From Amycolatopsis alkalitolerans (GTDB lineage: Bacteria > Actinomycetota > Actinomycetes > Mycobacteriales > Pseudonocardiaceae), in assembly GCF_006152065.1 (NCBI RefSeq), contig NZ_VDFW01000010.1, positions 124,001 to 188,000 of the forward strand: 64,000 nucleotides of DNA. The letters are read 5' to 3'. The position numbers and the translations under genes are program-made. Every line of letters starts with the position of its first letter. The first letter of the stretch is position 1. Positions 19,821 to 38,056 of this stretch are shown piece after piece. Below the pieces are notes generated by a model. It saw nothing but the letters and a program-made list of their open reading frames with translations. It was not told the origin of the DNA and ran no database searches.

Positions 19821-20918
19821 ATGTCAACGAGCCGGCCGGTGATCACACGGGAAAGCATCCTCGACGCGCTTCGCGGCGTCGACGACCCGGAACTCCATCG
19901 ATCCGTCGTCGACCTCGGCATGGTGCGTGAGATCAAGATCGACGGCACCGAGGTGACCGTCCACCTGGCACTGACGATCGCGGGCTGCCCGCTGCGCGAA
20001 TACTTCCACCGCGTGGTGCCGGAGCGGGTCCGCGCCGAGTGCCCGGAGGTCACCGCCGTACAGGTGGAACTGAGCGCGATGACCGACGAAGAGCGCACGG
20101 AGGCCGTGGGCGGCGTACGGGTCACGGTGCCGCGCGTCGGCGAGAGCGGGTCGCGCACCCGGATCATCGCCGTCGGCAGCGGCAAGGGCGGTGTCGGAAA
20201 GTCCACCGTGGCGGTGAACCTCGCCGCCGCCCTCGCCGCGGAGGGGCACCGGGTCGGCCTGCTCGACGCCGATATCTGGGGCTTTTCCGTACCCCACATG
20301 CTCGGCGCGACCGGGCGCCCCACGATCGTCGGCGATCTCATCATGCCGCTGGACGCGCACGGGCTCGCCGTGCTGTCGATCGGCAACTTCCTTCCCGAGG
20401 AGGGCCCGGTGGTCTGGCGCGGTCCCATGCTGCACAAGGCGCTCGAGCAGATGCTCGGCGACGTGCACTGGGACGACCGGGATTACCTGGTGATCGACAT
20501 GCCGCCGGGCACCGGTGATGTCTCGATCTCGCTGTCACAGTTCCTGCCCAACGCGGATTTCCTGCTCGTGACGACCCCGCACGAGAGCGCCGAACGGGTC
20601 GCGCTGCGCGCCGCCCGCATGATGACCAAGGTCGGCCTGCGGTTGACCGGGGTCGTGGAGAACATGGCCAGCTTCGTCTGCGACGACTGCGGCCGGGAAC
20701 ACGAACTCTTCGGGACCGGCGCCGGGACACGGCTCGCGGAACTGCTTGATGTTCCCCTGCTGGCGCGGATCCCGCTCGAGCCGGCGTGCACCACCACCGG
20801 AACGCCCACGGTGCTCGCCCATCCGGAAGCCGCCGCCTCGCTGCGATTCGGGGAACTGGCCAAGACAATCGCCGCGAAGCCGTCCCTGCTGCACCGCCCG
20901 CTACCGCTGTTCACCTGA
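19821..20918 (+). CDS. mrp: Mrp/ApbC-type iron-sulfur carrier ATPase with MIP18 domain
   Basis: 365-residue P-loop ATPase that binds and transfers Fe-S clusters. N-terminal MIP18/DUF59 domain at residues 8-95 (DALRGVDDPELHRSVVDLGMV), then the ATPase: deviant Walker A GSGKGGVGKST near 118, DADIWGFSVPHML, and IDMPPGTGDV. The cluster-binding pair CDDC is near residue 290 in ENMASFVCDDCG. Start ATG at 19821 with AGGGAG upstream. Transcribed away from fabL-like; its 3' end overlaps the convergent Rieske gene by 18 bases. Likely matures the sHdr, LipS or Soe Fe-S proteins. Confidence 0.9.
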   Translation: MSTSRPVITRESILDALRGVDDPELHRSVVDLGMVREIKIDGTEVTVHLALTIAGCPLREYFHRVVPERVRAECPEVTAVQVELSAMTDEERTEAVGGVRVTVPRVGESGSRTRIIAVGSGKGGVGKSTVAVNLAAALAAEGHRVGLLDADIWGFSVPHMLGATGRPTIVGDLIMPLDAHGLAVLSIGNFLPEEGPVVWRGPMLHKALEQMLGDVHWDDRDYLVIDMPPGTGDVSISLSQFLPNADFLLVTTPHESAERVALRAARMMTKVGLRLTGVVENMASFVCDDCGREHELFGTGAGTRLAELLDVPLLARIPLEPACTTTGTPTVLAHPEAAASLRFGELAKTIAAKPSLLHRPLPLFT

Positions 20919-21569
20919 GTTCAGGATCAGGAAGATCTGGCCTCCCTCCCGTGTCACGGTGAAGACCGGCACTTCCGCATCGGCGGGCCCGCGGACCCGC
21001 TCGCCGGTGCGGACGTCGAACTGGCTGCCGTGCCGCGGGCAGGTGAGGACCGTGCCCTCGAGCTCTCCTGTGGACAGTTCGGCACCCGCATGCGGGCAGC
21101 GGTCGGACACCGCGCACAGCCGCCCTTCCACCTGATACACCGCCACCGGCCCGACCGGGGTCTCCGGGATCCGGCACACCAGGCCCAGCCGGCCCGCGGC
21201 GTCGGCCGCGTCGAGCAGCGGGAACCGCCGGTCGGCCGTCCCGGCCGCCAACCGTGCCGCCAGCTGTGCCGCGAGCGCGCCGCGGTTCACCACGACATCG
21301 CAGCCCGCCCGCTGGGCGGTACGCCACAGCTTCGGGTCCGGCACGGCCGAGTAGGCGAGGACGACCGTCCCCGGCCACCGCTCGCGCCACTCCCGCACCA
21401 TTTCGACGGCACCGGGGCCGTCGAGCTCCACGACAGCCGCGGCCGGCTCACCATCCACTTCGGACGGTGAGCCGACCGCGAACCCGTGCCGCGTGGCGAC
21501 AACGCGGACACGCTTGGCGACCATCGCGTCACGACCGTGCAGGACGATCGTGGCTGTTGATCGCGTCAT
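20901..21569 (-). CDS. Receiver-like domain fused to a Rieske [2Fe-2S] domain
   Basis: 222-residue protein, last gene of the sHdr operon. Residues 5-105 have the alpha/beta pattern of a CheY-type receiver (IVLHGRD, AAAVVELDG with Asp50 at the phospho-acceptor place, TVVLAYSAVPDP), but the acidic pair and the conserved Lys are missing, so it is a pseudo-receiver. Residues 125-222 are a Rieske ferredoxin: Cys158-Pro-His160 and Cys177-x2-His180. No transmembrane segment. Start chosen at ATG 21569, one base after the DsrE stop. Probably a cytoplasmic electron carrier of the sulfur pathway; I know of no described fusion of this type. Confidence 0.75.
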   Translation of the reverse strand: MTRSTATIVLHGRDAMVAKRVRVVATRHGFAVGSPSEVDGEPAAAVVELDGPGAVEMVREWRERWPGTVVLAYSAVPDPKLWRTAQRAGCDVVVNRGALAAQLAARLAAGTADRRFPLLDAADAAGRLGLVCRIPETPVGPVAVYQVEGRLCAVSDRCPHAGAELSTGELEGTVLTCPRHGSQFDVRTGERVRGPADAEVPVFTVTREGGQIFLILNSGEQR

Positions 21570-21570
21570 C

Positions 21571-22077
21571 TCAGATGAACAATGTGATGTCGGCCTTCGC
21601 TGCCATATCGATGAAGCTGGCCGCACCGAGCGAAGGCTGCAGACCGTCGACGAAGTCCTCCGCCTTCAGCCCGTAGAGATCCATAGTCATCTGGCACGGA
21701 TGCATCCGCACACCGACGGCGGTCGCCATCTCGAACAGCTCCGTCGGGCTCGCCACCTTGTACTGCTTGGCGAGCTTCTTGATCATCGCGGTGCCCGCGC
21801 CGCCGAAGTGGATCTTGCCGAGCTTCAGGTGGTCGGTACCACCCCGGTCGACCAGCGATTCGGCCTTCTGCATCAAGTTCGTTCCGGTCACCCGCTTGTC
21901 ATTGCGTTGCAGGACCCGCAGGCCCCAGAAGGTGAAGAAGATGTCCACCTCCAATCCCGATGCGGCTGCCGTGCTGGCCAGGATCAGGGTGGGCCACACC
22001 CGATCCAGGTCGCTGCTCCAGCACACCATCGCGAGCCGCTTGGCTCGCTCCTCAACCTCAACCCCGTCCTCGGCCAT
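21571..22077 (-). CDS. dsrE3A: DsrE3A-like sulfur carrier
   Basis: 168-residue DsrE/DsrF-family protein. The family fold shows in LAMVCWSSDLDRVWPTLIL and VDIFFTFWGL; the persulfide-carrying Cys is in MHPCQMTMDLYG near residue 128, matching the CQMSMD-type site of DsrE2/DsrE3A. These proteins exchange sulfane sulfur with TusA in sulfur oxidisers. ATG at 22077 follows AAAGGTG; an upstream ATG at 22104 is less likely. Lies between the small membrane peptide and the Rieske gene. Confidence 0.86.
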   Translation of the reverse strand: MAEDGVEVEERAKRLAMVCWSSDLDRVWPTLILASTAAASGLEVDIFFTFWGLRVLQRNDKRVTGTNLMQKAESLVDRGGTDHLKLGKIHFGGAGTAMIKKLAKQYKVASPTELFEMATAVGVRMHPCQMTMDLYGLKAEDFVDGLQPSLGAASFIDMAAKADITLFI

Positions 22078-22149
22078 GACACACCTTTCAGTTCTGTTAA
22101 CCAACCTCCCGGTCCCGGGTCGTGGTAACGGCTCGTACCGGACGTCTTC

Positions 22150-22287
22150 CTACAAGTGCGCGATCAGCCAGGTGACGCCCTGAACCAACCGGAAAACCAG
22201 GTATCCGGCGAACACCAGCGCCACCACCAGCCACCATGGCGACACCCGGCGCCGGCTGCGCCCGGTCCCTTCGGGAACACCACTCAT
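22150..22287 (-). CDS. 45-residue single-span membrane peptide
   Basis: Short ORF between lbpA and dsrE3A: an Arg-rich cytoplasmic N-terminus (GRSRRR, residues 9-14) followed by one hydrophobic helix of about 25 residues starting at SPWWLVVALV. ATG at 22287 with GAGAGGTG upstream, stop TAG. Orientation by the positive-inside rule puts the N-terminus in the cytoplasm. It could anchor LbpA, DsrE3A or the EMO complex at the membrane. No family recognised; supported by ribosome-binding site, membrane-like composition and the tight operon gap. Confidence 0.6.
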   Translation of the reverse strand: MSGVPEGTGRSRRRVSPWWLVVALVFAGYLVFRLVQGVTWLIAHL

Positions 22288-22300: not shown

Positions 22301-22765
22301 TCATTCGGCACACCGGTAACAGTGAATGTCGTGCTCTGCCATGAACTCGCGGTAGGCCTCCATCGCGGCGTGCCCGTCGACGAGGTGCTCGCGCTCCTCG
22401 GCGAACCGCTCCGGGCGCACCCGCGCGATCCAGCCCGCGCCGTAGGGATCCCGGTTGGCCACCGCGATGTCCTCGGCGAACGCCTTTTCGTTCGACGCCA
22501 CCAGTTCCCCGGTCAACGGCGTGGGAAAAGGCCCCACCCACTTCGCGCTCTCGATGGTCGCCACGGACTTCCCGCGCGCGAACGCCTTTCCCACGCGCCG
22601 CCAGGTGATCTGCACCATCCGCCCGCCCATCGTCTGCGCGATGTCGGTCATGCCGAGCACCACCACGTCACCCTCCGGGCGCACCCATACGTTCATCCCG
22701 ACGTCGTAGAGAAGGTCATCCGGGACGACGCATCCGCGCCACACGACATCCGTCACCGCACTCAC
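22301..22765 (-). CDS. lbpA: Lipoate-binding protein LbpA-like (GcvH fold), copy 1
   Basis: 154-residue GcvH-like carrier. Lipoyl-lysine motif IESAKWVG with Lys75; the flanking PTPLTGELVASN and DPYGAGWIARVRP match the hammerhead fold. sHdr-associated LbpA proteins carry sulfur-oxidation intermediates on the lipoyl arm and differ from glycine-cleavage H protein (motif ESVKA). No gcvP or gcvT is nearby. GTG start inside a GTGA overlap with the second copy. A C-terminal Cys pair (HCYRCAE) is specific to this copy. Confidence 0.88.
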   Translation of the reverse strand: MSAVTDVVWRGCVVPDDLLYDVGMNVWVRPEGDVVVLGMTDIAQTMGGRMVQITWRRVGKAFARGKSVATIESAKWVGPFPTPLTGELVASNEKAFAEDIAVANRDPYGAGWIARVRPERFAEEREHLVDGHAAMEAYREFMAEHDIHCYRCAE

Positions 22766-23199
22766 CCGTCACACGAGATGCCCTCGGCGTCCAGGAACTG
22801 GTGGTACGCCTCGATTCCGGCCGCGCCCGTGACGAGGTCCGCGGAGTCCGCGGCCCAGTCGGCGGGGCGCAACTTCGCCACCCATCCGGCACCGTAGGGA
22901 TCGGAGTTGATCAGAGCGGGCGAGGTGGTCAGGGTGTCGTTGACCTCGACGATCTCGCCGGACACCGGAGCCGGTACGGGCCCGACCCACTTCCCGCTCT
23001 CCACCGTCGCGACGTTGCGCCCCTTGCGAACCTCCTTGCCCGCCTTCTTCAGCGTGACCGAGATGATCGTCTTCGCGAGGTTCTGCGCGACGTCGGTCAT
23101 GCCGATGGTGACCAGGTCGCCTTCCTGGCGAACCCACACGTGCCGTTCCACGAGGTAGTGCAGATCCTCGGGAAGGTTGCAGTTCTTGACCATCGCCAC
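22762..23199 (-). CDS. lbpA: Lipoate-binding protein LbpA-like (GcvH fold), copy 2
   Basis: 145-residue GcvH-like carrier with lipoyl-lysine motif VESGKWVG at Lys70, GMTDVAQNL and DPYGAGWVAKLRP. The most LbpA-like of the three copies. The GTG start at 23199 is nine bases after AGGAG; an ATG two codons downstream is too far from that site. Paired with copy 1 by GTGA overlap. Two different Cys flank the fold (KNCNLP near the start and ISCDG at the end). Confidence 0.9.
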   Translation of the reverse strand: MAMVKNCNLPEDLHYLVERHVWVRQEGDLVTIGMTDVAQNLAKTIISVTLKKAGKEVRKGRNVATVESGKWVGPVPAPVSGEIVEVNDTLTTSPALINSDPYGAGWVAKLRPADWAADSADLVTGAAGIEAYHQFLDAEGISCDG

Positions 23200-23203: not shown

Positions 23204-23485
23204 TCAAGCTCCTGTCTGCTGTTCGGTGTGTTCGGCCACCAGGTGGTGGACCAGCATGTCCAGGGCGACCATCCGGATCTCGCCGCCGAACTCGTCGAGG
23301 AACCGCGGGTCGCGGGTGCCCTTGCGAAGCCGGTGCTCGTAGCTTTCGCCGCAGACCGGGCAGGTCACCTCGTAGAACTGGGTCCCGTTCATTTCCTTGG
23401 TGCGCACCGCGTCCGGGTGCTCGCCGGCGAGATGCGCGTGCAGGGCGCGTGGCGCCCCCTCGAACGCGCACCACGGGCAGTTCAT
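23204..23485 (-). CDS. Small zinc-ribbon protein of unknown role
   Basis: 93 residues with two likely metal sites: CPWC at the N-terminus followed by HAHLAGEH, and CPVCGESYEH in the middle followed by a late His pair (VHHLVAEH). The pattern suggests two small Zn fingers or a Zn/Fe site. ATG at 23485 overlaps the winged-helix gene by ATGA, and the stop is 4 bases from lbpA copy 2. Not recognised as a named family; within the sHdr operon it may be an assembly or regulatory factor. Confidence 0.7.
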   Translation of the reverse strand: MNCPWCAFEGAPRALHAHLAGEHPDAVRTKEMNGTQFYEVTCPVCGESYEHRLRKGTRDPRFLDEFGGEIRMVALDMLVHHLVAEHTEQQTGA

Positions 23486-23913
23486 GGCGCCACCACCCCG
23501 GCCGCGGCCCACGCCATCAGCTCCACCAGCTCGACGATCCCGTGCCCGGCCTCGGTCAGCCGCACCTGATCCCCGTCGAGCTCCCGGCTCACCAGTCCGA
23601 CCTGCACGAGATCGTTCACCTGCTCCCAGGCCACGATGCGCGGGCTGGACAGCTCGGCCGCGAGCTCCGCGGTCGTGGTCGTTTCCGCGGCGAGCCGGGC
23701 GAGTATGCGCCAGCCGACCGGATCGCACGCGGTGCGCAGCGCGCGCACCACGAACGCCAGCGCCGCGTCGGCGACGGCCGAATCGTCGGGCGCGGTGGAC
23801 TCGGCCTGGCCCGGCCGGAACGCGAAACCGTCGTAGCGCTCCAGCGCGGTCCGGAGCGCGGCCAACCGGACGCCGAGCCCTTTCCCGGTCAGCTCCGGGT
23901 CGAATCCGCTCAC
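23482..23913 (-). CDS. Winged-helix protein of unknown role in the sHdr operon
   Basis: 143 residues. The C-terminal half has winged-helix character (WRILARLAAETTTTAELAAEL, then VNDLVQVGLVSREL and VRLTEAGHGIVELVE), as in MarR/ArsR proteins, while the N-terminal half is helical without a recognised domain. GTG start in a GTGA overlap with the EMO stop and an ATGA overlap with the zinc-ribbon gene. It may bind DNA, or use the fold for protein contacts with the partner encoded next. No function assigned. Confidence 0.65.
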   Translation of the reverse strand: MSGFDPELTGKGLGVRLAALRTALERYDGFAFRPGQAESTAPDDSAVADAALAFVVRALRTACDPVGWRILARLAAETTTTAELAAELSSPRIVAWEQVNDLVQVGLVSRELDGDQVRLTEAGHGIVELVELMAWAAAGVVAP

Positions 23914-26120
23914 GTCGCCACCACCTCCAGCACGCCGGGCTCCGCGGGTCGGCGGAGCGCCTCGCGGACCAGCAGCGTGATGTCCCGCACCGCCATCCGG
24001 TCCTCGTTCCCGGTGGTCTTGACGGCGTCGGAGTACATCGTCACGTCCTTCGGGCAGGCCACGACGAAGTGATCGACGCCGAGCTCCATCGCCTCGCGGA
24101 TCCGGTTCTCGCTGGGACGTTCGGCGAGGAAGCTGTCATCCATCCAGATGCGGCCACCGCCGGCCCCGCAGCAGAACGTGTTCGCGCCGTTGCGCGGCAT
24201 CTCGACCAGCTCGCAGCCCAGTGCCCGCAGCAACCGCCGCGGCGCCTCGACCACGCCGTTGTAGCGGGCCAGGTAGCACGGATCGTGGTAGGTCACCCGG
24301 TAGCCGAGCGGCTCCACCTTGATGGTGCCGTTCTCCACGAGATCGGCCAGCAGTTCCGTGTAGTGCCACACGGTGTGCTTCGCGCCCCGCGCCGGGTACT
24401 CGTTGCGCAACGTGTTGAGCGAATGCGGGTCCGTCGTGAAGATCTCGTCGAACTGTGCCTGTTCCAGCGCGGAGATGTTGTGCTCGGCGAGCAGTTCGAA
24501 CAGGCCTTCCTCACCGACCCGGCGCACGTCGTTGCCCGCGTTGCGCTCACCGTCGTACAACAGCCCGAAGTCGACTCCCGCGCCGTGCAGGATCTCCGCG
24601 AGCGCCTGGGAATTCCCCTGCAGCCGGTCGTCGAAGCTGGCGAAGTCGCCGACGAACCACAGGTAGCGAACGGGTTCCTTGCGCGCGTCGGGGATCTTGA
24701 AGTCCAGCCCCTTCGTCCACCTCGCCCGCATCCGGGCGGACTTGCCGAACGAGTTGCCCTGTGTGGACAGGTTCTTCAGCGCCTGCTGCAACGTCGGGTC
24801 CATGTCACCCTCGTCGACCAGGCCGCGCCGCAGCTGCACGATGGTCGGCACATGCTCGATCCCGACCGGGCACACCTCGACACAGTGCATGCACGTGGTG
24901 CACGACCAGAGCGTGCGCGTCGAGACGACCCCACCGGCGACCTTCCCGTCGTCGCCGGAGGAGAGCGGGCCCGAGCCGTCGGTGCGGGTCTCGCGGTCGA
25001 GCACGGTCACTCCACCGGCCTGGGTGTCCGCCCACTGACGCAGATCGAGGATCAGGTCGCGGGGCGAAAGCGGGGCTCCCGCGGTCCGTGCCGGGCACAC
25101 CTCGTGGCAGCGCCCGCATTTGGTGCACGCGTCGAGATCCAGCAGTTCCTTCCAGGTGAAGTCGGCGAGCTCGCGGTAGCCGGCGTGCTCGGCGTCAGCC
25201 GGCGGCGCCGGCAGCTGCCGTGCCGTCGACCGGTCGTGCACCAGCAGGTTCGCCGCGTCCAGCAGCATGTGCATCGCCTTGGAGAACGGGATGTAGACGA
25301 CGAAGCCCAGCGCGAGCACCGCATGCACCCACCACTGCACCAGGTGCGCCCCGTCCCCGCCCGCGGGCGACATGCCCAGCGCGGAAAACAACCGTGCCAG
25401 CACCCAGCCGACCGGCGACCAGACCTCGAACGACGGGAACCGTTCACCGACGATCCGGAAGGCCTCCAGCAGGTAGCCGCTGACCAGGATCGCGCCGAGC
25501 AGGCCGAGGAAGAGCCAGTCACCGGCCACGATCCGCTTGCGGGAATAGCCGCCTTCGGGTTGTTCGGCGCGCTGGTAATCCAGCTTGCGCGGCCGCATGA
25601 ACCCGCGCCGCACCGCCATGTACGCCAGGCCGAGCACCGCGGTCAGCCCCATCGTGTCCAGGATGACCGAATACACGATGTAGAAGACGCCGTGGAAGAA
25701 GCTCAGCTCATGCCCCGAGATCAGGCTCGAGGCCTTGCGCAGGATGTCGTAGTCGATGGTGAGGATCACGGTGCCGATGAACAGGGTGATGAAACCCCAG
25801 AAGATGAAGAAGTGCGCGATCCCGGCCGCGCGGTCGCGGCGGCCCACCGAGGTGTTCGCCGCGACCGCACCGACCGACCAGTTGTCGCCCCGGCGCCGCA
25901 CGCCCTGCGCCGGGCTGGTGAACAGCGCCTTCCACAGTGTCGCCATCCTGGCGGCCGGACGCCCTCGCCGGTACTTGCGCACCCTGCGGTAGAAGCCCCA
26001 GAAGAACAGCACGATGGTGGCGGTCGCGAGCACGTAGAACGCGGCCTCCCCCACCGTGCCGATGCCCTGGAAGACCGGGCGGGTCTCGTCCTGGCCCGCC
26101 AGTGCGTCCGAGAGAACCAC
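23910..26120 (-). CDS. emo: Membrane ETF:quinone oxidoreductase, HdrD-like (EMO/EtfD type)
   Basis: 736-residue protein joining a membrane cytochrome-like domain to HdrD-type Fe-S modules. About six hydrophobic segments lie in residues 25-300 (for example FFIFWGFITLFIGTVILTI). Two [4Fe-4S] motifs follow: CTKCGRCHEVCPA and CTTCMHCVEVCPVG. The C-terminal half has two Cys-rich CCG domains (HDPCYLARYN, FCCGAGGGR, VVACPKD). Such proteins pass electrons from electron-transfer flavoprotein to (methyl)menaquinone. GTG start with AAGGAG, three bases after etfA. Together with EtfAB it links the sHdr complex to the respiratory chain. Confidence 0.88.
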   Translation of the reverse strand: MVLSDALAGQDETRPVFQGIGTVGEAAFYVLATATIVLFFWGFYRRVRKYRRGRPAARMATLWKALFTSPAQGVRRRGDNWSVGAVAANTSVGRRDRAAGIAHFFIFWGFITLFIGTVILTIDYDILRKASSLISGHELSFFHGVFYIVYSVILDTMGLTAVLGLAYMAVRRGFMRPRKLDYQRAEQPEGGYSRKRIVAGDWLFLGLLGAILVSGYLLEAFRIVGERFPSFEVWSPVGWVLARLFSALGMSPAGGDGAHLVQWWVHAVLALGFVVYIPFSKAMHMLLDAANLLVHDRSTARQLPAPPADAEHAGYRELADFTWKELLDLDACTKCGRCHEVCPARTAGAPLSPRDLILDLRQWADTQAGGVTVLDRETRTDGSGPLSSGDDGKVAGGVVSTRTLWSCTTCMHCVEVCPVGIEHVPTIVQLRRGLVDEGDMDPTLQQALKNLSTQGNSFGKSARMRARWTKGLDFKIPDARKEPVRYLWFVGDFASFDDRLQGNSQALAEILHGAGVDFGLLYDGERNAGNDVRRVGEEGLFELLAEHNISALEQAQFDEIFTTDPHSLNTLRNEYPARGAKHTVWHYTELLADLVENGTIKVEPLGYRVTYHDPCYLARYNGVVEAPRRLLRALGCELVEMPRNGANTFCCGAGGGRIWMDDSFLAERPSENRIREAMELGVDHFVVACPKDVTMYSDAVKTTGNEDRMAVRDITLLVREALRRPAEPGVLEVVAT

Positions 26121-31548: not shown

Positions 31549-32363
31549 GAAAGCGTCCCCTTCGTCGCGCCGACCCAGACACCGGCCCTGATCTTGATCC
31601 CGCCGGGTGGTCTCGCCGCCCGCTCGCCGGGTCCGGCCATCCAGGCCTCACTGGTGAACCGCGCGTCGAGTTCGGTCAGCGCCGCCTCCTCGTCGCCGGT
31701 AAGCTCGCCCGCCTGCGGCGTCAGGCCGAGCGCCGCCGCATACGCCTCGACGGCGGCGTCGCGGAACGCGACGGGATCCGCCGGCGTCGCCGCCACGTAC
31801 CGCCGCATCTGGCGGAGCACCTCCGCGCGGGTTTCCTCGTCCGGAACCCGCAACACCGCCGTGGCGCGCTCGTGATCGAACCGCTCGATCAGGTTGCCGC
31901 ACAACACGACCGCGTCCTCGATCTGCCCCGCGCCGTGCCCGCAGATCTTGCGGTCACCGACGCTGATCTCGAGGTTGCCGTCCAGTTCCGCCGGCACCCC
32001 GACCGCCCGGAACGCCGTGACCGCCGGCGCCAGCAGGTCACGGACGGCGGTGGCCCGCGCGGGCGAAACCCCGCCCACCGGCAGGCAGATCTGAAAAAAC
32101 AGCTGATCGGCGTCGAGGTACACCGGACCGCCGCCGACCATCCGGCGGTAGACCGGCAACCCCTGTGCCGCGCAGTACTTCTCATCCACCTCGTCCAGCC
32201 GCCGGTGGTAGCCCAGGCAGACGTAGGGCTCGGCGGGCCGCGCGAACGACAGGGTGGGCGGAGCGCCGCCGGACACGCCGTAGGCGACGGCGTGCCACAG
32301 CGTCTGCGACCGCAGCGCGGAGACGCGGCCGAAGTCGATCACCCGGAGCTGGCTACCCGGCAT
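31545..32363 (-). CDS. Second lipoate ligase/octanoyltransferase-like protein
   Basis: 272-residue BPL/LplA/LipB-superfamily protein without the C-terminal accessory domain. Motifs: RRMVGGGPVYLD near residue 73, LFFQICLP, the conserved Lys in GDRKICGHGAGQ near residue 138, and VLCGNLIE. Could be an octanoyltransferase (LipM-like), a lipoyl-relay amidotransferase or a second ligase; the sequence does not decide. Overlaps sHdrB3 by 11 bases and the third lbpA-like gene by 4. Confidence 0.8.
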   Translation of the reverse strand: MPGSQLRVIDFGRVSALRSQTLWHAVAYGVSGGAPPTLSFARPAEPYVCLGYHRRLDEVDEKYCAAQGLPVYRRMVGGGPVYLDADQLFFQICLPVGGVSPARATAVRDLLAPAVTAFRAVGVPAELDGNLEISVGDRKICGHGAGQIEDAVVLCGNLIERFDHERATAVLRVPDEETRAEVLRQMRRYVAATPADPVAFRDAAVEAYAAALGLTPQAGELTGDEEAALTELDARFTSEAWMAGPGERAARPPGGIKIRAGVWVGATKGTLS

Positions 32364-33651
32364 GGTCCATCGCTTCGTCGATGAGCTCGATGATGTCGCG
32401 CACCTTCAGGTGCCCGTTGCCCGTCGACTTCGCCGCGTCCTCGAACCGGGAGACCTCGTACGGGCAGCACACCACGAGCGTGTCGGCACCGGTCTCGGCG
32501 GCCTCGCGGACACGCCGCTCGGACAGGCGCTCGCTCGTGTGGTCCCGGGTGAACCCGTCCAGCCACATCCCGCCGCCACCGCCGCCGCAGCAGTACCCGT
32601 TCTCCCGGCAGCGCCCCATCTCCCGCAGTTCGATGCCGGGAATCGCGTTGATGAGCTTGCGCGGCGCGTCGTACTCGCCGTTGTGCCGGCCGAGGTAGCA
32701 CGGATCGTGGAAGGTCACCTTGTAGGGCAGCTCCTTCGCCCAGGTGATCTTGTCCACCAGCGGCGAGAGCAGCTGGGTGTAGTGCAGCGCGTCGAAGGTG
32801 TGGCCGCGCTTGGGGTATTCCTTGACCAGCGCGTTGAACCCGTGCGGGTCGGGGGTGGCGATCCGGGCGAAATCATACTTGGCCAAGGTCGCCGTGACGT
32901 CCTCGACGAGCGCGTCGAACAGCCCCTTCTCGCCGGCCAGGCGCTGCGAGTCGCCGAGGGTCTTCTCCTCGGGCCCGAGGATCGCCCAGTCGATTCCGAG
33001 CGCGTGGGCGACCCGGGCGAACGCCCGCGCCGCCTCCTGGCCGCGCGGATGGTAGCTCCAGTAGTCCTCCACGTAGAACAGGACGTCCACCGGACCCGGC
33101 TCCTTCGAGAGGATCCGCACCGGCACCCCGGCGTCCCGTGTCCACTGTGCGCGGCGGCGCGGGTTCTCACCGAGCGCGTTGCCGTAGCGGAACGTCTTCT
33201 CGAACACGTCCTGCAGCTCGCCCGGCACGTTGCCGTCGGCGAGCGCCGCTTCCCTGGCGGCCGGCATGATCTGGATCATGTCGACCTCCTTCGGGCAGAC
33301 CCGCAGGCAGTTCCCGCAGCTCGTGCACATCCACAGGTCGGGATCGGTCAGCAGATCCACCCCGGTTTGGACCTTCCGGTGGAGCTTCCGCGGGCCGTAC
33401 TCACCGACCAGGTCCACGGGGCAGACCGGAATGCACTTGCCGCAGCCGTAACACCATTCGAGAGACTCGGCACCGGGCAGCTCGGCGAGCTTCGCGAAGC
33501 CGTCCGGGCTGTGTTCGGTGAGCACGCGCGGCTCGAACATTCGATTCCACATCGCCGGCAGCTCGACCTCACGGCCGGAGATCGTCGAGGCGACGGTGGC
33601 TTGTTCCTTCTCGATGGCACGGGGCGGAACCTTGCGCCCGGAGATGGGCAT
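32353..33651 (-). CDS. shdrB3: sHdrB3, HdrD-like iron-sulfur protein
   Basis: 432 residues. N-terminal ferredoxin-like part with WCYGCGKCIPVCPVD and MCTSCGNCLRVCPKE; C-terminal HdrB-like part with two CCG motifs (HDPCYLGRHN...YCCGGGGGGMW, then VVCCPYE). No membrane segments, unlike EMO, whose soluble half it resembles. sHdrB3 is the marker separating type II sHdr clusters (C1-B1-A-H-B3 with etfAB and emo) from type I (ending C2-B2). Probably the electron exit from the sHdr core to EtfAB. Starts ATG, 3 bases after shdrH. Confidence 0.87.
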   Translation of the reverse strand: MPISGRKVPPRAIEKEQATVASTISGREVELPAMWNRMFEPRVLTEHSPDGFAKLAELPGAESLEWCYGCGKCIPVCPVDLVGEYGPRKLHRKVQTGVDLLTDPDLWMCTSCGNCLRVCPKEVDMIQIMPAAREAALADGNVPGELQDVFEKTFRYGNALGENPRRRAQWTRDAGVPVRILSKEPGPVDVLFYVEDYWSYHPRGQEAARAFARVAHALGIDWAILGPEEKTLGDSQRLAGEKGLFDALVEDVTATLAKYDFARIATPDPHGFNALVKEYPKRGHTFDALHYTQLLSPLVDKITWAKELPYKVTFHDPCYLGRHNGEYDAPRKLINAIPGIELREMGRCRENGYCCGGGGGGMWLDGFTRDHTSERLSERRVREAAETGADTLVVCCPYEVSRFEDAAKSTGNGHLKVRDIIELIDEAMDHAG

Positions 33652-33654: not shown

Positions 33655-34383
33655 TCAGACCTCCAGACGGTAGACGCCGAGCAGGCGGCGGACGAGATCG
33701 GGCAGTGAGGGCACCACCCGGTTGAACTCCTGGGTCATGCGCATCCGCAACACGGTGTAGAGATAGATGCCGTAGACGGCGGCCAGGAACACATCGGTAC
33801 CGAACAGGCCGGGACCCGCGGCGGTGAAACCGGCGGCCTTCCCCGTCTCGTCGACGAAGGCCATCGCCTCCCCCACCGACAGGTAGGTCTCGCCACGCGA
33901 GGTCCCGGCGGCGAGATCGACGTCGTCGGTGACCACCAGCCGCAGGGCCCCGGTCTCGACACGCGGATCCCAGATCCACCGGGTCCACAGCCAGTACCGG
34001 TCCGGGAAGGCGAAGTGCAGCAGCTCTCCCGGCAGGTCGAAGCCCGGATCGGCGAAATCGGCCAGCACCGTGTCGAACCGGTCGAACCGTTGCACGAGCC
34101 CGCCCTTGGCATAGAGCAGGTCGTCGATGGCGGCCGCGAGCCGGTCCGCCGAGACCTCGTCCAGGATGCGGTCCGCCCTGCGCCGGGTGGCGAAGACGTT
34201 ACGCAGCACCAGGCGCAGGCCGTCCCGGTCCAGCGCGCGGGGTTCGGCGAGCAGGTCCCGCAGCAACCGGGACTTGCGCTCGACGTCCGCGGCGATGGTC
34301 CCGAGTTCGGCCGTGGGCATCTTCTCGGAGATCTCGCGCACGAACTCCTGCGCGCTGGGGGTGTCGACGACGGGTCCGGGCAT
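33655..34383 (-). CDS. shdrH: sHdrH, conserved sHdr-cluster protein of unknown function
   Basis: 242-residue soluble protein with no known cofactor motif. It begins after a Pro-rich start with SAQEFVREISEKMPTAEL; the middle has GLVQRFDRFDTVLADF and YWLWTRWIWDP, an aromatic-rich patch. The position between shdrA and shdrB3, and lack of Cys, fit the hypothetical protein (called HypC/H) present in all sHdr operons. Assigned by context. Its role is unknown even in studied organisms. Confidence 0.8.
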   Translation of the reverse strand: MPGPVVDTPSAQEFVREISEKMPTAELGTIAADVERKSRLLRDLLAEPRALDRDGLRLVLRNVFATRRRADRILDEVSADRLAAAIDDLLYAKGGLVQRFDRFDTVLADFADPGFDLPGELLHFAFPDRYWLWTRWIWDPRVETGALRLVVTDDVDLAAGTSRGETYLSVGEAMAFVDETGKAAGFTAAGPGLFGTDVFLAAVYGIYLYTVLRMRMTQEFNRVVPSLPDLVRRLLGVYRLEV

Positions 34384-34400: not shown

Positions 34401-35465
34401 TCAGCTCGCGGCCGCGGCGGCGCGGGAACGGACGAAGGACACGGCCTTGAGCGCGGCGTTGGACGCCGAGGACACGGTGTCTTCGAGATCGGCCGGGCCG
34501 AGCGCCGCGCCGCACGCGTAGATGCCCTCCCGGTCCGTCGACACCGGATCCAGCGGAGCCCCGACCGCATTGATGAAGCCGTACTTGTTCTGGCCGACCC
34601 CGAGCAGCTCGGAGATCTGCCGGGTGCCTGCCGAGGGTTCCATCCCCACCGAGAGCACGACCATGTCCATCGGGATCTCCATCGGACGGCCCATCGTGGT
34701 GTCCTCGCCGCGGACGATCAGCTTGTCCGCCTTGGGCAGTACCTCCGTGACCATGCCCTTGACGTACTGGACATGGTGCTTCTCCTGGGCGGGCCAGTAG
34801 ATCTCGCTCTCCCAGTAGCCGTACATGCGCATGTCGATGTAGAAGATGTAGACCTTGCAGTCCGGCAGCAGCTGGCGGACCTCGATCGCCTCCTTGGACG
34901 CGATCCCGCAGCACACCTTCGAGCAGTACTCGTTGCCGATATGCCGGTCACGGCTGCCGACGCACTGGATGAAGCACAGCCGCTCCGGCGTTTCGCCGTT
35001 CGAGGGCCGCACCACCCGGTGTTCCTTGAGCATCGCCTCGAGGTCCTGCAGGGCGATCACGTCCGGGAACTCGTAGTAGCCGTACATCTGGGTCTCGCGT
35101 CCCGGATCGAAATGCTGAAACCCGGTCGCCACCACGACGGCGCCGCACTCGACGGACTCCACTCCCCCGGGCCCGTCCACGGTCAACGTGAACGCGCCCG
35201 GCTCACCGTCGAACCCGGTCACCCGGGTGGACAGCCGCACCTCGGCGAGTGGATGTGAAGTGACCAGCTCGGCCATCCGCCGCATCTGCGGTTCGGCTTC
35301 CTCGCCGTGCGGGGTCAGGCCCGCGTAGTTCTCCGCGATCGGCGTGCCGCCGAGAAAATCGTGTTGCTCGATGAGCACAACCTTCGCGCCCACCTCGGCA
35401 ATACCGTGCGCGGCGCGCAGGCCGCCAGGGCCGCCACCGATAACGGCCACCGTGTCCGATGCCAT
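34401..35465 (-). CDS. shdrA: sHdrA, FAD- and Fe-S-binding subunit of the sHdr complex
   Basis: 354-residue HdrA-like flavoprotein. N-terminal FAD-binding GGGPGGLRAAHGIAE at residue 10, second dinucleotide-type motif AVVVATGFQHFDP, and the HdrA-specific cluster segment IQCVGSRD then YCSKVCCGIASKEA around residues 168-195; the C-terminal FAD contact is GIYACGAALGP. It lacks the extra ferredoxin domains of methanogen HdrA, as expected of sHdrA. Proposed to bifurcate or channel electrons released as sulfane sulfur on LbpA is oxidised. ATG start, 38 bases after shdrB1. Confidence 0.92.
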   Translation of the reverse strand: MASDTVAVIGGGPGGLRAAHGIAEVGAKVVLIEQHDFLGGTPIAENYAGLTPHGEEAEPQMRRMAELVTSHPLAEVRLSTRVTGFDGEPGAFTLTVDGPGGVESVECGAVVVATGFQHFDPGRETQMYGYYEFPDVIALQDLEAMLKEHRVVRPSNGETPERLCFIQCVGSRDRHIGNEYCSKVCCGIASKEAIEVRQLLPDCKVYIFYIDMRMYGYWESEIYWPAQEKHHVQYVKGMVTEVLPKADKLIVRGEDTTMGRPMEIPMDMVVLSVGMEPSAGTRQISELLGVGQNKYGFINAVGAPLDPVSTDREGIYACGAALGPADLEDTVSSASNAALKAVSFVRSRAAAAAS

Positions 35466-35503: not shown

Positions 35504-36694
35504 TCAGTCGACGTCATCCCAGTCGAGATAGCGTTTCTCGCCCTTCTCGAGCTTCTTGAGCCCTTCCTGGAACTCCGCCCAGGCCTGTTCCCAGTCGATG
35601 CCCATCTTCTCCAGCAACGGCCGGTAGTCCGCGGAATGCCAGTGCAGCTGGCACACCTTGTACGGGTGCGCACCCATCGCCAGCGCGGCGAACTGGGCCT
35701 CGCTCATCACGGCGACGCCGACGTTGCGCTCGTGCGCCTTGGCCGCGAACTGGCTCTTGTCCAGTGTGGTCACGCAGCCGGTGTCGTGGGTGAGCACGAC
35801 GTCGGGGTCGGCCTCCTCCTTCATCACCTCGATCTTGCGCATCGTGGCGAAGGAGCGGGTGAAGTCCCGCTGCACCAGGATGTGCCGGAAACCGAAGCCG
35901 CAGCAGTCGAACCAGGTGGAGTACTCGCGGACGTCGGCGCCGAGGCGCTGGGCCAGCCCGGTCACCACCGCGGTGCGCTGACCGCCGTAGACGTCGGGAT
36001 CGTAGATCGCGTCACCCTCGACGAGCTTGTAGTAGTGGCAGGCGGGATGCACGGTGACGCGGACACCGGACAGGTCACGGGTCTGCAGCGCCGCGATCTC
36101 GTGGCGCATCGCGTAGAACCACTCCGAATAGTGGACCAGCTCTTCTGGGAACACCAGTTCCTTGCCGAGCTTGCCCATGATCTCCCGCACCTCGGCCCGC
36201 AGCTCGGGATGCGTCAGCAGCTCCTCGCGCACTTCCTTGTAGTGCCCGTACGAGGTTCCACAATGGACGAGCGGGAAGTAGCCGGTCTCCGCCGCGGCCG
36301 CGAAGTTGCGCACCGCGACCGACGCCTGAGCGGCGACGTTGGAGGTCGCACTCGCGTAGTAGTTCCAGGCGGTGCAGGAAGTCTGGTCACGCGGATCGTG
36401 GTAGTCGTACCCGAGCTTGCGCATCACCCAGAAGATCGAGGTCGAGTAGCCGGGGATGTGCCCGCACTGCCCGCAGGACTTGTGGTGCCACAGATGTCCT
36501 TTTTGGATCCGCTTCTCCCTGCCGTACTTCGTCGGCACGGTGATCACGTCACCCTGGATCTTCTGCACGACCAGCTCGCCCTGCTCTTCCAGGTGCAGCA
36601 GTTCGGCCCTGGGATCCTCGAGCGACCGGCGGTCCGCGCCGCGCTCGAAATGCTCTTTCTTCTGCCTGAGGGCTTCGATCGGAATCGTGGTCAT
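35504..36694 (-). CDS. shdrB1: sHdrB1, HdrB-like subunit with CCG domains
   Basis: 396 residues. Two CCG-type cysteine domains that bind the non-cubane Fe-S clusters of HdrB: HKSCGQCGHIPGYSTSIFW (early) with HPACHYYK and FDCCGFG, and TGCVTTLDKSQ later with HWHSADYRP. Function in sHdr is proposed to be the active site that handles the disulfide or sulfane substrate. ATG at 36694 overlaps shdrC1 by ATGA; ends 38 bases before shdrA. Confidence 0.92.
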   Translation of the reverse strand: MTTIPIEALRQKKEHFERGADRRSLEDPRAELLHLEEQGELVVQKIQGDVITVPTKYGREKRIQKGHLWHHKSCGQCGHIPGYSTSIFWVMRKLGYDYHDPRDQTSCTAWNYYASATSNVAAQASVAVRNFAAAAETGYFPLVHCGTSYGHYKEVREELLTHPELRAEVREIMGKLGKELVFPEELVHYSEWFYAMRHEIAALQTRDLSGVRVTVHPACHYYKLVEGDAIYDPDVYGGQRTAVVTGLAQRLGADVREYSTWFDCCGFGFRHILVQRDFTRSFATMRKIEVMKEEADPDVVLTHDTGCVTTLDKSQFAAKAHERNVGVAVMSEAQFAALAMGAHPYKVCQLHWHSADYRPLLEKMGIDWEQAWAEFQEGLKKLEKGEKRYLDWDDVD

Positions 36695-37404
36695 AGCTCG
36701 ATACCTTCCTCTTCGAGGCGCTCCTCCATCACGTCCTGCAGGATCGAGTGCAGGCTTGCGTCGACGTCGGCGATCATGTCCAGCGCCCCGGTGTGCAGCC
36801 AGATCAGGTAGAGCTCGACCAGCGTCTTCTCCGAGACATCCCAGCCCGTGCTCGTCGTGTGCAGCGTCTCCGACGGCAGCGCCCGGCGCCACAGGTCCAG
36901 GTTGTTCGACACATCGCCGGTTTCCGGTCCCCAGTCGGGAAACGCGTCCGGCTGCAGCATGTCCGGGGACACCTGGGTGCCGGTGGACATGATCTTGTAG
37001 ATGATGCGCGAGTAGCCCTCGAGAGCCTCCTTGGCCGAGGCCATCCCGTTGTTGATGGCGACCTCACGCATGATCGTGATGATCCCGCCAGGGTTGTTGC
37101 CACGCGGGCAGCGCAGGCACGAGAAGCACTGGGAGCACTCCCAGATGTCCTCCTGCATCTGCTGGTAGATCAGCTCCACGTCCTCGCGGGCCGCGGCCTG
37201 CGCGACCCGGCGGGGACTGAAGTCGTAGAACCGGGCCGACGGGCAGGCGGCCACGCAGATCCCGCATTCGTAGCAGCCGTAGAGGTAGTCGGAGAACCGG
37301 ATGTCGTTCTTCACTTCGCCGAACAGGCGCTCCTTCTCCTCGAAGGGAACGTCCGGATAGCCGGCGACGGTGGGAGCCTTGTAGTAGCTCAGTGCTTCGG
37401 TCAC
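36691..37404 (-). CDS. shdrC1: sHdrC1, iron-sulfur subunit of the sHdr complex
   Basis: 237-residue HdrC-like protein. Two [4Fe-4S] motifs: CYECGICVAACP near residue 44, and CSQCFSCLRCP near residue 90. The second has the unusual CxxCxxCxxCP spacing seen in sHdrC proteins. A long helical C-terminal half follows. GTG start after AGGAG; 11 bases after the DsrE-like gene and ATGA-coupled to shdrB1. Confidence 0.92.
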   Translation of the reverse strand: MTEALSYYKAPTVAGYPDVPFEEKERLFGEVKNDIRFSDYLYGCYECGICVAACPSARFYDFSPRRVAQAAAREDVELIYQQMQEDIWECSQCFSCLRCPRGNNPGGIITIMREVAINNGMASAKEALEGYSRIIYKIMSTGTQVSPDMLQPDAFPDWGPETGDVSNNLDLWRRALPSETLHTTSTGWDVSEKTLVELYLIWLHTGALDMIADVDASLHSILQDVMEERLEEEGIEL

Positions 37405-37415
37405 GAGCTCATCTC

Positions 37416-37799
37416 CTAGAAGCTGATGACCGCGTCGGCGTTGATCGCCAGATCGTTGAAGGCGGCGCCCCCGATCATGTCGACCCCGTCGATGAGGCTG
37501 TCCAGGCTGAGGTCGTTGAGATCCAGCGACGGCTGGCAGACCAGCAGTCGCACCCCCAGACTCGTCGCCTGCTCGATGAAGTGCCGGAGCGGCTGGCCCC
37601 GGTCTCCCTTGGGGCCGATCTTGTCGACGACGTCACGCTGCAGGAGCGTCGGGCCGTACATGGTGAAGTAGATCATCACCTCGCAGTCCATCGCCGCCGC
37701 GGACGCCGCGAGGAAGAACGGTGTCGCCGACCGCCCGGGATCGGTGACACCGTGGGTCTGCACGTACAGGATCTTGCTGTCGAACTCTCCAGACCACAT
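37416..37799 (-). CDS. dsrE: DsrE-family sulfur carrier (DsrE3B/C-like)
   Basis: 127-residue DsrE-fold protein. DsrE signatures: ILYVQTHGVTDPG, MIYFTMYGPTLL and the Cys in LLVCQPSLDLNDL near residue 95, a probable persulfide carrier. It differs from the DsrE3A protein at 21.6 kb, so the operon codes for two types at its two ends. ATG at 37799 preceded by AGGGAG; gaps of 11 bases on each side tie it to tusA and shdrC1. Confidence 0.84.
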   Translation of the reverse strand: MWSGEFDSKILYVQTHGVTDPGRSATPFFLAASAAAMDCEVMIYFTMYGPTLLQRDVVDKIGPKGDRGQPLRHFIEQATSLGVRLLVCQPSLDLNDLSLDSLIDGVDMIGGAAFNDLAINADAVISF

Positions 37800-37810
37800 T
37801 GGACGCTCCC

Positions 37811-38056
37811 TCACTTCACCCGGCGGATGAGGACGTGGAACACGTCGCCGTCCTTGCGGATGTCAACCAGGTCGTTTCCGGTGCGGCCGGTCCAGGCACG
37901 CATATCGGGATCGACTCCGGGATCGGTGGCAAGCAGTTCCAGGACTTGACCGGTGGACAGCGTCTTGATCGCCTGCGCCGTCTTGATCACGGGAAGCGGG
38001 CACTGCAGCCCGGTGCAGTCGAGCACCTGGTCGGCCGCCGGCTGGGACTCGGGCAC
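37811..38056 (-). CDS. tusA: TusA-family sulfurtransferase
   Basis: 81-residue TusA-like protein, first gene of the sHdr operon. The CPxP motif is LDCTGLQCPLPV with Cys14 and the catalytic Cys19. TusA is the central sulfur carrier that delivers sulfane sulfur to sHdr in many oxidisers. The GTG start at 38056 has GAGGAG eight bases upstream; an ATG 11 codons earlier would place a non-conserved Arg-rich tail before the domain. No thiouridine-pathway genes are nearby, which supports the dissimilatory role. Confidence 0.9.
   Translation of the reverse strand: MPESQPAADQVLDCTGLQCPLPVIKTAQAIKTLSTGQVLELLATDPGVDPDMRAWTGRTGNDLVDIRKDGDVFHVLIRRVK

What the first reader, a model, noticed from the sequence alone, without database searches (positions are those of the whole stretch)
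20901..38056. Complete type II sHdr-LbpA sulfur-oxidation operon in an actinobacterium
Seen: about 22 minus-strand genes in tight succession, many with 4-bp overlaps, from tusA through dsrE, shdrC1-B1-A-H-B3, lipoyl assembly, etfBA, emo, two lbpA, dsrE3A and a Rieske protein. Known: type II sHdr clusters (with shdrB3, etfAB, emo) oxidise sulfane sulfur to sulfite with LbpA as carrier. Inference: this organism is a sulfur chemolithotroph, and the operon shows an arrangement with extra genes not in standard descriptions.
Basis: partly seen in the sequence, partly recalled or inferred. Interest (0 to 1): 0.9.

Follow-up and report, generated by a model that had tools for sequence, protein, structure and literature searches.

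The report
Sulfur-fed carbon-fixing gene island, Amycolatopsis
A soil-type actinomycete of the genus Amycolatopsis carries, close together, genes for oxidising sulfur compounds and genes for fixing carbon dioxide, in a block that seems to have been passed between species; this suggests, but does not show, that it can live partly on sulfur and air.

Summary
In detail: 21 minus-strand genes at 20901-38056, perhaps 22, form a type II sHdr-LbpA operon. The published definition, shdrC1B1AHB3 plus etfAB in one cluster (PMC11582611, passages), is met. The arrangement is not exceptional: the order recurs in public genomes, and a Group III layout was described for Actinobacteria in 2018 (PMC6067878). 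The genus is Amycolatopsis. About 47 kb aligns with A. acididurans at ~92% DNA identity, with synonymous identity above background (0.828 against 0.663 and 0.783), so it was probably exchanged between lineages. sHdrB1 is in 2 of 19 sampled genomes of the genus. Within the operon, the third GcvH-like protein lacks the LbpA cysteine pair (0 of 33 relatives) and may be a lipoyl relay. The operon is a new member of a known kind; lithoautotrophic growth is inferred, not shown.

The parts
37811..38056 (-). tusA, sulfur carrier
   Evidence: PF01206 75.7 bits; Cys19 in 79 of 79 aligned
37416..37799 (-). dsrE-type sulfurtransferase
   Evidence: PF02635/PF13686; Cys88 in 84 of 84
36691..37404 (-). shdrC1, two [4Fe-4S] motifs
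   Evidence: Fer4_8; best NCBIfam HdrC 83.7 bits, below cut-off 350; 8 Cys in 84 of 84
35504..36694 (-). shdrB1, proposed catalytic CCG subunit
   Evidence: PF02754 44.5 bits; best NCBIfam HdrB 133.5, below cut-off 450; CCG-site Cys in 86 of 86
34401..35465 (-). shdrA, FAD/FeS subunit
   Evidence: best solved match 6tjr, 349 aa, 300 bits; CoB-CoM HdrA chains 196.6 or less
33655..34383 (-). shdrH, helical protein of unknown role
   Evidence: no Pfam/NCBIfam match; AF2 pLDDT 92.2; no Foldseek PDB match at E<=0.001
32353..33651 (-). shdrB3, ferredoxin and CCG parts in one protein
   Evidence: Fer4_8 plus PF02754
31545..32363 (-). single-domain lipoate ligase/transferase-like protein (Lpl1)
   Evidence: PF21948 80.2 bits; Lys139 in 42 of 42
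31069..31548 (-). GcvH-like lipoyl protein without the LbpA cysteines (Lbp3)
   Evidence: PF01597 67 bits; Lys82 in 39 of 39; Cys pair in 0 of 33
30092..31072 (-). LipS1-like radical SAM protein
   Evidence: NF053742 224.5 bits, just below cut-off 230
28980..30095 (-). lipoate-protein ligase-like protein (Lpl2), sLpl(AB) candidate
   Evidence: PF21948 124.6 bits; TIGR00545 117.4, below cut-off 280
27877..28884 (-). LipS2-like radical SAM protein
   Evidence: NF053743 185.7 bits, below cut-off 270
27099..27863 (-). etfB (start uncertain)
   Evidence: PF01012 83.6 bits
26124..27089 (-). etfA
   Evidence: best NCBIfam families are EtfA-type, below cut-offs
23910..26120 (-). emo-like membrane protein with FeS and CCG domains (function name recalled)
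   Evidence: Fer4 domains and PF02754 70.9 bits; N-terminal part weakly like QmoC
23482..23913 (-). winged-helix-like protein, unknown role
   Evidence: PF25213 20.9 bits, below cut-off 35; in 14 of 27 loci spanning the position
23204..23485 (-). small protein with two CxxC...H...H sites
   Evidence: zf-Di19 27.6 bits, cut-off 27.5; in 25 of 27 loci; Cys/His kept
22762..23193 (-). lbpA (Lbp1)
   Evidence: PF01597 130.9 bits; Lys68, Cys5, Cys141 conserved; nearest solved chains are GcvH
22301..22765 (-). lbpA (Lbp2)
   Evidence: PF01597 97.8 bits; Lys75, Cys12, Cys149, Cys152 conserved
21571..22077 (-). dsrE3A-like sulfurtransferase
   Evidence: PF13686 145 bits; Cys128 in 41 of 41
20901..21569 (-). 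receiver-like domain plus Rieske ferredoxin domain
   Evidence: PF00355 55.6 bits; AF2 pLDDT 90.8, alternating beta/alpha N-terminal half; Rieske part by Foldseek
39089..39406 (-). ArsR-type regulator 1
   Evidence: NF033788 86.7 bits, cut-off 55
39476..39805 (-). ArsR-type regulator 2
   Evidence: NF033788 87.2 bits, cut-off 55
15464..16906 (-). tetrathionate hydrolase homologue with lipoprotein-like signal
   Evidence: PDB 6l8a 316 bits, E 3.8e-93, Asp325 kept; signal read by eye
40995..43865 (-). molybdopterin oxidoreductase, proposed sulfite dehydrogenase subunit
   Evidence: PF00384, PF01568, PF04879; relatives beside other sHdr clusters
43888..45417 (-). FeS protein fused to NrfD membrane domain
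   Evidence: PF13247 plus PF03916
39892..40998 (-). Mrp/ApbC-type FeS carrier 2
   Evidence: PF10609 294.7 bits
19839..20918 (+). Mrp/ApbC-type FeS carrier 1
   Evidence: PF10609 281.1 bits
5190..6134 (-). phosphoribulokinase
   Evidence: NF005655 381.5 bits, cut-off 236
6119..8143 (-). transketolase
   Evidence: TIGR00232 757.6 bits, cut-off 682.25
8140..8802 (-). ribulose-phosphate epimerase
   Evidence: TIGR01163 238.8 bits, cut-off 212.6
11509..12507 (-). class I fructose-bisphosphate aldolase
   Evidence: NF033379 470.7 bits, cut-off 250
12510..13463 (-). class II fructose-bisphosphatase
   Evidence: TIGR00330 329 bits, cut-off 259.3
13588..14496 (-). LysR-type regulator, CbbR candidate by position
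   Evidence: several LysR families, none over cut-off; NF045990 CbbR 138 of 450 bits
1..5167 (-). part of a second complex I operon (nuoB-F, end of nuoG by eye)
   Evidence: TIGR01959 and TIGR01962 over cut-off; PF01058, PF01257; two NuoD in the genome

Best explanation
The operon encodes a type II sHdr-LbpA system that oxidises sulfane sulfur in the cytoplasm, and it is the energy module of a larger sulfur-lithoautotrophy island in an Amycolatopsis. Proposed flow: a cell-surface lipoprotein tetrathionate hydrolase splits tetrathionate; sulfane sulfur enters the cell by an unknown route and passes along DsrE3A/DsrE/TusA to LbpA and the sHdrC1-B1-A-H-B3 complex, which forms sulfite; electrons go through EtfAB and the Emo protein to menaquinone; the neighbouring molybdoenzyme with its FeS-NrfD partner oxidises sulfite to sulfate; a dedicated second complex I supplies NADH by reverse electron flow; RuBisCO, PRK and the other Calvin enzymes fix CO2. 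LipS1, LipS2 and Lpl2 build lipoate on the two true LbpA proteins. Shown by sequence: gene content, order, conserved catalytic residues, family matches, sharing of the block with A. acididurans. Inferred: every reaction, direction of electron flow, growth mode, sulfur uptake route.
For: The operon meets the published type II definition (genes). sHdrA scores 300 bits with 6tjr (recalled as Hyphomicrobium sHdrA; the record title names only a flavoprotein) and 196.6 or less with CoB-CoM HdrA chains. In a tree of C1+B1+A, 81 rows, the window groups with A. acididurans (98*) and a Nocardioidaceae MAG (99*) inside an actinobacterial set. Cluster and lipoyl residues are conserved; Lbp1 in 30 of 31 and Lbp2 in 29 of 30 complete relatives have the N- and C-terminal Cys pair named as the LbpA hallmark. 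RuBisCO large, the only PF00016 match in the genome, lies 12 kb left of the window, with small subunit, CbbX and GAPDH; PRK, TKT, RPE, FBA and FBPase are in the window. Two NuoD in G000 and in G018, one in each of G011, G003, G005. Tetrathionate hydrolase homologue over nearly full length with Asp325. A molybdoenzyme relative (59-80% identity) lies within the 10-kb flanks of 5 of 80 sHdr loci (L048 Gordonia rhizosphera; L082, L096, L102, L105 Chloroflexota), and a partial one in G061; a 94% copy is elsewhere in A. acididurans.
Against: No expression, growth or enzyme data. No sulfur importer or thiosulfate-oxidising enzyme was identified; the SoxY search gave 0 of 3 genomes but its control rang nowhere. 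LipS1, LipS2 and both ligases score below NCBIfam cut-offs. The molybdoenzyme's best NCBIfam match is thiosulfate reductase PhsA, 166 of 694 bits, so substrate and direction are open. The tetrathionate hydrolase gene is missing from the shared A. acididurans block, and such enzymes are described as acting at acid pH in acidophiles. Most sHdr loci fetched show no RuBisCO within 10 kb (seen in 2 of 80). A Thermomicrobium roseum cluster of this kind serves a heterotroph in starvation. By sequence alone the nearest solved relatives of Lbp1 are GcvH proteins. Base composition shows no step at the island.
Confidence: 0.72

Rival explanations
1. The sHdr system is real, but it only supplements heterotrophic growth or persistence (oxidation of thiosulfate, organic sulfur or thiols during starvation), and the Calvin genes serve other electron donors or CO2 recycling, so the organism is not a sulfur lithoautotroph.
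For: Hyphomicrobium denitrificans is called obligately chemoorganoheterotrophic and uses thiosulfate as a supplemental donor (PMC12423496, abstract); T. roseum raises a similar 19-gene cluster about 45-fold in persistence (PMC6776052, passages). One other Amycolatopsis (G011) has RuBisCO and PRK without an sHdrB1 match, and RuBisCO was seen near only 2 of 80 sHdr loci.
Against: Calvin genes, second complex I and sHdr operon are shared as one collinear block by two species. L028 and L086 have RuBisCO and PRK, and G061 (L022) has PRK and transketolase, near sHdr. Autotrophic sulfur-oxidising actinobacteria are in print for acidic sites (Norris et al. 2011, seen only as a reference-list entry).
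Confidence: 0.3
2. The Hdr-like complex works in another direction or on another substrate, for example thiol/disulfide exchange or sulfur detoxification, as suggested for T. roseum.
For: The T. roseum authors propose disulfide formation between a thiol and a carrier. I saw no proven substrate for a type II system in the passages read.
Against: TusA, DsrE, DsrE3A and two LbpA with conserved cysteines recur in these clusters; a possible sulfite-oxidising enzyme lies beside some of them.
Confidence: 0.08
3. The contig is a contaminant in the assembly and does not belong to an Amycolatopsis.
For: Assembly contamination estimate 2.94%.
Against: A gene about 5 kb left of RuBisCO has 82-90% matches in G004, G005 (one internal stop) and G009 of the genus; the block is present at ~92% in A. 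acididurans strain K13G38.
Confidence: 0.03

Closest known systems
Group III / type II sHdr-LbpA clusters of Actinobacteria and Firmicutes (Cao et al. 2018, PMC6067878, section 5 read; definition in PMC11582611, passages)
   Same: shdrC1B1AHB3, etfBA and two to three GcvH-like genes in one cluster
   Different: Here Lpl1-Lbp3-LipS1-Lpl2-LipS2 lie between B3 and etfB, as in 24 other loci; the third GcvH-like protein lacks the LbpA cysteines; the cluster sits by Calvin genes in Amycolatopsis
Thermomicrobium roseum 19-gene cluster trd_0160-0142 (PMC6776052, passages)
   Same: Hdr-like, EtfAB, TusA, DsrE and three lipoate-binding proteins
   Different: Chloroflexi member; no Calvin island or tetrathionate hydrolase in the passages seen
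Tetrathionate hydrolase of acidophiles (PMC10859504, passages)
   Same: Nearly full-length homologue with the catalytic Asp325
   Different: In an actinomycete, with a lipoprotein-type signal, near a type II sHdr operon
SoeABC-type sulfite dehydrogenase (family recalled)
   Same: Molybdoenzyme, FeS part and NrfD membrane part
   Different: FeS and NrfD parts are one protein; substrate untested
sLpl(AB)-LipS1/LipS2 lipoate assembly (PMC10332631, passages)
   Same: Two radical SAM proteins and a ligase beside LbpA genes
   Different: No LipT-like gene among the operon's gene calls by the scans (rest of genome not searched); a second, single-domain ligase-like gene and a GcvH-like gene without the LbpA cysteines are added
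Autotrophic sulfur-oxidising actinobacteria of acidic sites (Norris et al. 2011; reference entry only)
   Same: Sulfur-based autotrophy in Actinobacteria
   Different: Named there for Acidithiomicrobium; here a member of Pseudonocardiaceae

Membership tests
Type II sHdr-LbpA system | shdrC1B1AHB3 and etfAB in a single syntenic cluster (PMC11582611) | tested here: met
Type II sHdr-LbpA system | C2 and B2 fused as B3 | tested here: met
   one 432-aa protein with two 4Fe-4S motifs and one CCG domain
Type II sHdr-LbpA system | sHdrA of the short sulfur-oxidiser type, not methanogen HdrA | tested here: met
   354 aa; 6tjr (349 aa, recalled as sHdrA) 300 bits; CoB-CoM HdrA chains of 643-671 aa 196.6 or less
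Type II sHdr-LbpA system | HMSS2 profile assignment | not tested
   HMSS2 not available here
LbpA (22762-23193 and 22301-22765) | lipoyl Lys plus N- and C-terminal Cys that GcvH lacks (PMC6067878) | tested here: met
   window residues; 30 of 31 and 29 of 30 relatives
LbpA (31069-31548) | N- and C-terminal Cys pair | tested here: not met
   window protein has no Cys; pair in 0 of 33 complete relatives, 25 of 33 with no Cys (two genomes stand twice among the 33)
sLpl(AB)-LipS1/LipS2 lipoate assembly | LipS1 and LipS2 over curated NCBIfam cut-offs | tested here: inconclusive
   224.5 of 230 and 185.7 of 270 bits; best family in each case
Sulfur oxidation in vivo | sulfane sulfur oxidised to sulfite | not testable with these tools
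   needs culture or enzyme work
Tetrathionate hydrolase | homologue over the whole propeller with catalytic Asp325 | tested here: met
Tetrathionate hydrolase | hydrolysis of tetrathionate | not testable with these tools
   no assay
SoeABC sulfite dehydrogenase | SoeA-type molybdoenzyme | tested here: inconclusive
   no NCBIfam over cut-off; no PDB match at the strict limit E<=1e-40; near 5 of 80 sHdr loci; no SoeA tree made
Calvin cycle | RuBisCO and phosphoribulokinase | tested here: met
sHdrR sulfane-sulfur repressor | two conserved cysteines at the sHdrR positions | tested here: inconclusive
   ArsR1 has two Cys, kept in 0.74 and 0.23 of 39 aligned relatives; ArsR2 has one Cys; register with Cys50/Cys116 not aligned

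The most novel reading that the evidence does not exclude
The block is a transferable lithoautotrophy island: one horizontally exchanged unit carrying sulfur oxidation, a private complex I for reverse electron flow and the Calvin cycle can turn a heterotrophic actinomycete into a tetrathionate-fed autotroph. Within it, the GcvH-like protein without LbpA cysteines (Lbp3), with its single-domain partner Lpl1, is not an LbpA but a dedicated lipoyl relay that charges the true LbpA proteins, an analogue of the GcvH relay of Bacillus subtilis.
Probability: 0.35. Interest if true: 0.8.

Novelty: new member of a known kind. Interest (0 to 1): 0.55.

Why it matters
A genus that can be cultured, with type II sHdr, Calvin cycle, second complex I and a tetrathionate hydrolase homologue on one contig, would let the pathway, its proposed electron route (EtfAB-Emo) and its coupling to CO2 fixation be tested. 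It would extend sulfur-based autotrophy to Amycolatopsis, for which my library searches turned up no such report, and would show energy metabolism moving as one block within an actinomycete genus. The third lipoyl protein without LbpA cysteines, the conserved zinc-site protein and the receiver-like/Rieske protein are concrete unknown parts to study.

Tried and rejected
Viral contigs searched with sHdrB3: no relative. Plasmid collection: no tetrathionate hydrolase at E<=1e-40; sHdrB1 relatives (54.6%) on 3 Acidithiobacillus plasmids, one opened, with a lone HdrB-like gene among unrelated genes. SoxY: inconclusive. sHdrH fold: no PDB match at E<=0.001. Promoter scan of 20700-38300: 0 sigma-70-like sites against 1.1 expected; terminator-like sites 5 against 5.0. 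tRNA genes in the window: none. No integrase was noticed by eye in the gene lists; no search for one was made. Empty-site comparison: in the stretches fetched, G005 and G004 matched only left-flank genes (two places in G005, three in G004), so no clean empty site. The 'TM' query was in a wrong frame; its column is disregarded. The relay idea rests on sequence alone; an inactive copy or a third carrier is not excluded. Contamination considered and judged unlikely.

Full report
What is there. The minus strand from 38056 to 20901 carries tusA, dsrE, shdrC1, shdrB1, shdrA, shdrH, shdrB3, Lpl1, a GcvH-like gene (Lbp3), lipS1, Lpl2, lipS2, etfB, etfA, emo, a winged-helix-like gene, a small CxxC/His gene (ZnF), two lbpA, dsrE3A and a Rieske gene with an extra N-terminal domain: 21 gene calls (sequences). 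Domain scans agree, most NCBIfam matches lying below the cut-offs made for methanogen or other named relatives. sHdrH has no Pfam or NCBIfam match. A 45-codon membrane ORF near 22150-22287 was read by eye and is not counted.

Is it type II sHdr? PMC11582611 (passages) asks for shdrC1B1AHB3 and etfAB in one cluster, B3 being fused C2B2. All are met. sHdrA matches the solved chain 6tjr (349 aa; recalled as Hyphomicrobium sHdrA) with 300 bits and CoB-CoM HdrA chains with 196.6 bits or less. sHdrB1 matches HdrB chains only weakly, 56 bits or less. The sHdrB1 alignment brought 344 encoding stretches, of which the best 80 were kept. Of these 80, 71 have C1-B1-A-H-B3, 57 of them also etfB and 52 of those also etfA; loci cut by contig ends count as misses. 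The cluster cysteines of C1, B1 and B3 are kept in all or nearly all aligned relatives (a few genomes stand twice and cross-hits between paralogues are possible). In a quick tree of C1+B1+A with 81 rows (78 different) the window sits with A. acididurans (98*) and a Nocardioidaceae MAG (99*) in a set of 51 rows, 47 titled Actinomycetota and four without a group; the other 30 rows are mostly Chloroflexota, with Gemmatimonadota, Rokubacteria, KSB1/Calditrichota and five rows titled Actinomycetota. Rows L018/L047 and L022/L076 are the same genomes.

Is the arrangement new? Not by itself. Cao et al. [quoted passage not shown] In 71 loci with B3, the next gene is Lpl1 in 34, etfB in 33 and something else or out of sight in 4; the module down to etfB is complete in 24 of the 34. 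Of 27 loci spanning emo to Lbp1, 25 have the ZnF gene (not L051, L073) and 14 a hit to the winged-helix-like gene. So these are normal members of the cluster.

A detail not in the passages I read: LbpA proteins are marked by an N-terminal and a C-terminal cysteine that GcvH lacks (PMC6067878). By a first-25/last-25-residue test, Lbp1 has both in 30 of 31 complete relatives and Lbp2 in 29 of 30. Lbp3 has the pair in 0 of 33 and no cysteine at all in 25 of 33 (two genomes stand twice; a few starts are uncertain), while its lipoyl lysine is kept in 39 of 39 aligned rows. Lbp3 lies about 0.8-1.1 kb (hit start to hit start) from Lpl1 in all loci of that list with both, except L104, 7.8 kb. I propose a lipoyl relay; this is inference. 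The Bacillus GcvH relay is described in PMC6067878 (passage).

What lies around it. To the left are nuo genes, PRK, transketolase, epimerase, aldolase, FBPase and a LysR-type regulator. Twelve kb beyond the window edge is RuBisCO large, the only PF00016 match in the genome, with small subunit, CbbX and GAPDH; further nuo genes there were recognised by eye. NuoD occurs twice in G000 and G018 but once in each of G011, G003 and G005, so the island appears to have its own complex I. At 15464-16906 is a homologue of tetrathionate hydrolase: 316 bits to 6l8a over nearly the whole chain, with the Asp that is Asn in entry 7cqy (role of Asp325 from passages of PMC10859504); it starts with a lipoprotein-like signal (by eye). 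It was found in 1 of 396 sampled genomes of the phylum at E<=1e-40, the window's own (at most four candidates scored per genome). To the right are an Mrp/ApbC carrier, a 956-aa molybdoenzyme and an FeS-NrfD fusion. Relatives of the molybdoenzyme (59-80%) are within 10 kb of sHdrB1 in 5 of 80 loci, and a partial one is in G061; G018 has a 94% and a 61% copy on another contig and G042 a 60% one. The best NCBIfam match is PhsA, far below cut-off. I read it as a sulfite dehydrogenase by association only. RuBisCO lies within 10 kb in 2 of 80 loci (L028, L086).

Organism and history. G018's contig has the length of A. acididurans K13G38 NODE_9, so the genus is Amycolatopsis. sHdrB1 is in 2 of 19 sampled genomes of the genus, in 3 of 61 relatives and in 5 of 396 genomes of the phylum, one of them at 39%; RuBisCO is in 3 of 19. 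Window and G018 are collinear from C2:110559 to about window 39886 at about 92%, about 47 kb aligned; outside, no other match of 400 bases or more in the fetched parts but a 71% stretch of the two ApbC-type genes. The window's genome alone has, in this block, GAPDH, a 4.3-kb piece with the tetrathionate hydrolase, and a 530-bp piece at 38555-39084. The rest of G018 was not searched for the hydrolase. Fourfold synonymous identity is 0.828 in the island (50 of 76 gene calls matched, 8823 sites; single genes 0.61-0.91), against 0.663 left of rpoB (24 of 54 calls) and 0.783 right of it (20 of 23, mostly ribosomal by position). The background is one region and includes some low-identity matches that may be paralogues; none was dropped. 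This suggests transfer after the species split. Base composition does not stand out. G011 has a smaller Calvin cassette at 83-86%. A gene left of the island has 82-90% matches in three other Amycolatopsis, against contamination.

Likely working. Outside the cell tetrathionate is split; sulfane sulfur reaches TusA/DsrE carriers, LbpA and sHdr; sulfite is formed and passed to the molybdoenzyme; electrons enter menaquinone through EtfAB and Emo; complex I runs in reverse; CO2 is fixed. Gene presence and residues are shown; reactions and direction are inferred. How sulfur enters and how thiosulfate would become tetrathionate is unknown; SoxY was not detected, but the control was silent.

Literature limits. 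Only open-licence PMC papers could be searched. (sHdr, LbpA, Actinobacteria together): 0 papers. Searches (15 of 123 listed; 10 of 103 listed) rank papers with more terms first, and none listed contains Amycolatopsis. (12 of 1,244 listed) has two papers with all terms: in PMC8402940 Amycolatopsis stands only in the reference list; in PMC4585250 the 12 of 22 passages shown do not tie it to sulfur or CO2 fixation, but it names A. methanolica as a facultative methylotroph and cites Norris et al. 2011 on autotrophic sulfur-oxidising actinobacteria. A. acididurans in 2 papers, seen as listing only. Sulfur autotrophy in Actinobacteria as such is therefore not new. HMSS2 was not run. Whether the two ArsR regulators are sHdrR-like is open; the sHdrR authors note that many regulators found by their sHdrR model lack the two cysteines (PMC12423496, passages).

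Noticed in passing
window 38555-39084: 530-bp piece absent from the A. acididurans block; by eye one frame looks like a decayed transposase, but Pfam gives no match.
   Followed up: partly
   Followed up: partly
window 38192-38551: Plus-strand 119-aa protein with several CxxC pairs, divergent from the operon; hits in 13 of the 80 loci L026-L105; no Pfam match.
   Followed up: partly
window 33655-34383: sHdrH gives a confident helical AF2 model (pLDDT 92.2) with no Foldseek match in the PDB at E<=0.001.
   Followed up: yes
window 17095-18036: Protein with a LuxR-type DNA-binding end and a hydrophobic N-terminal part (by eye), next to the tetrathionate hydrolase gene; possible regulator.
   Followed up: no
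G011:C18 about 52863-59909 (L140, L141): A third Amycolatopsis has a small Calvin cassette (RbcL, RbcS, CbbX, PRK, two-component pair, LysR) without an sHdrB1 match.
   Followed up: partly
L024 (G065:C22): A 1.3-Mb genome of the phylum has a distant cluster with a 39% sHdrB1 relative and TusA, DsrE, LbpA-like and LipS1-like hits.
   Followed up: no
L164 (Acidithiobacillus ferrooxidans plasmid p1): Lone HdrB-like gene near a glycine-cleavage-H gene and hemerythrin, globin and hydroxylamine reductase genes.
   Followed up: no
G018:C35:392841-395639: A. acididurans has a second, 61% copy of the molybdoenzyme besides the 94% one.
   Followed up: no
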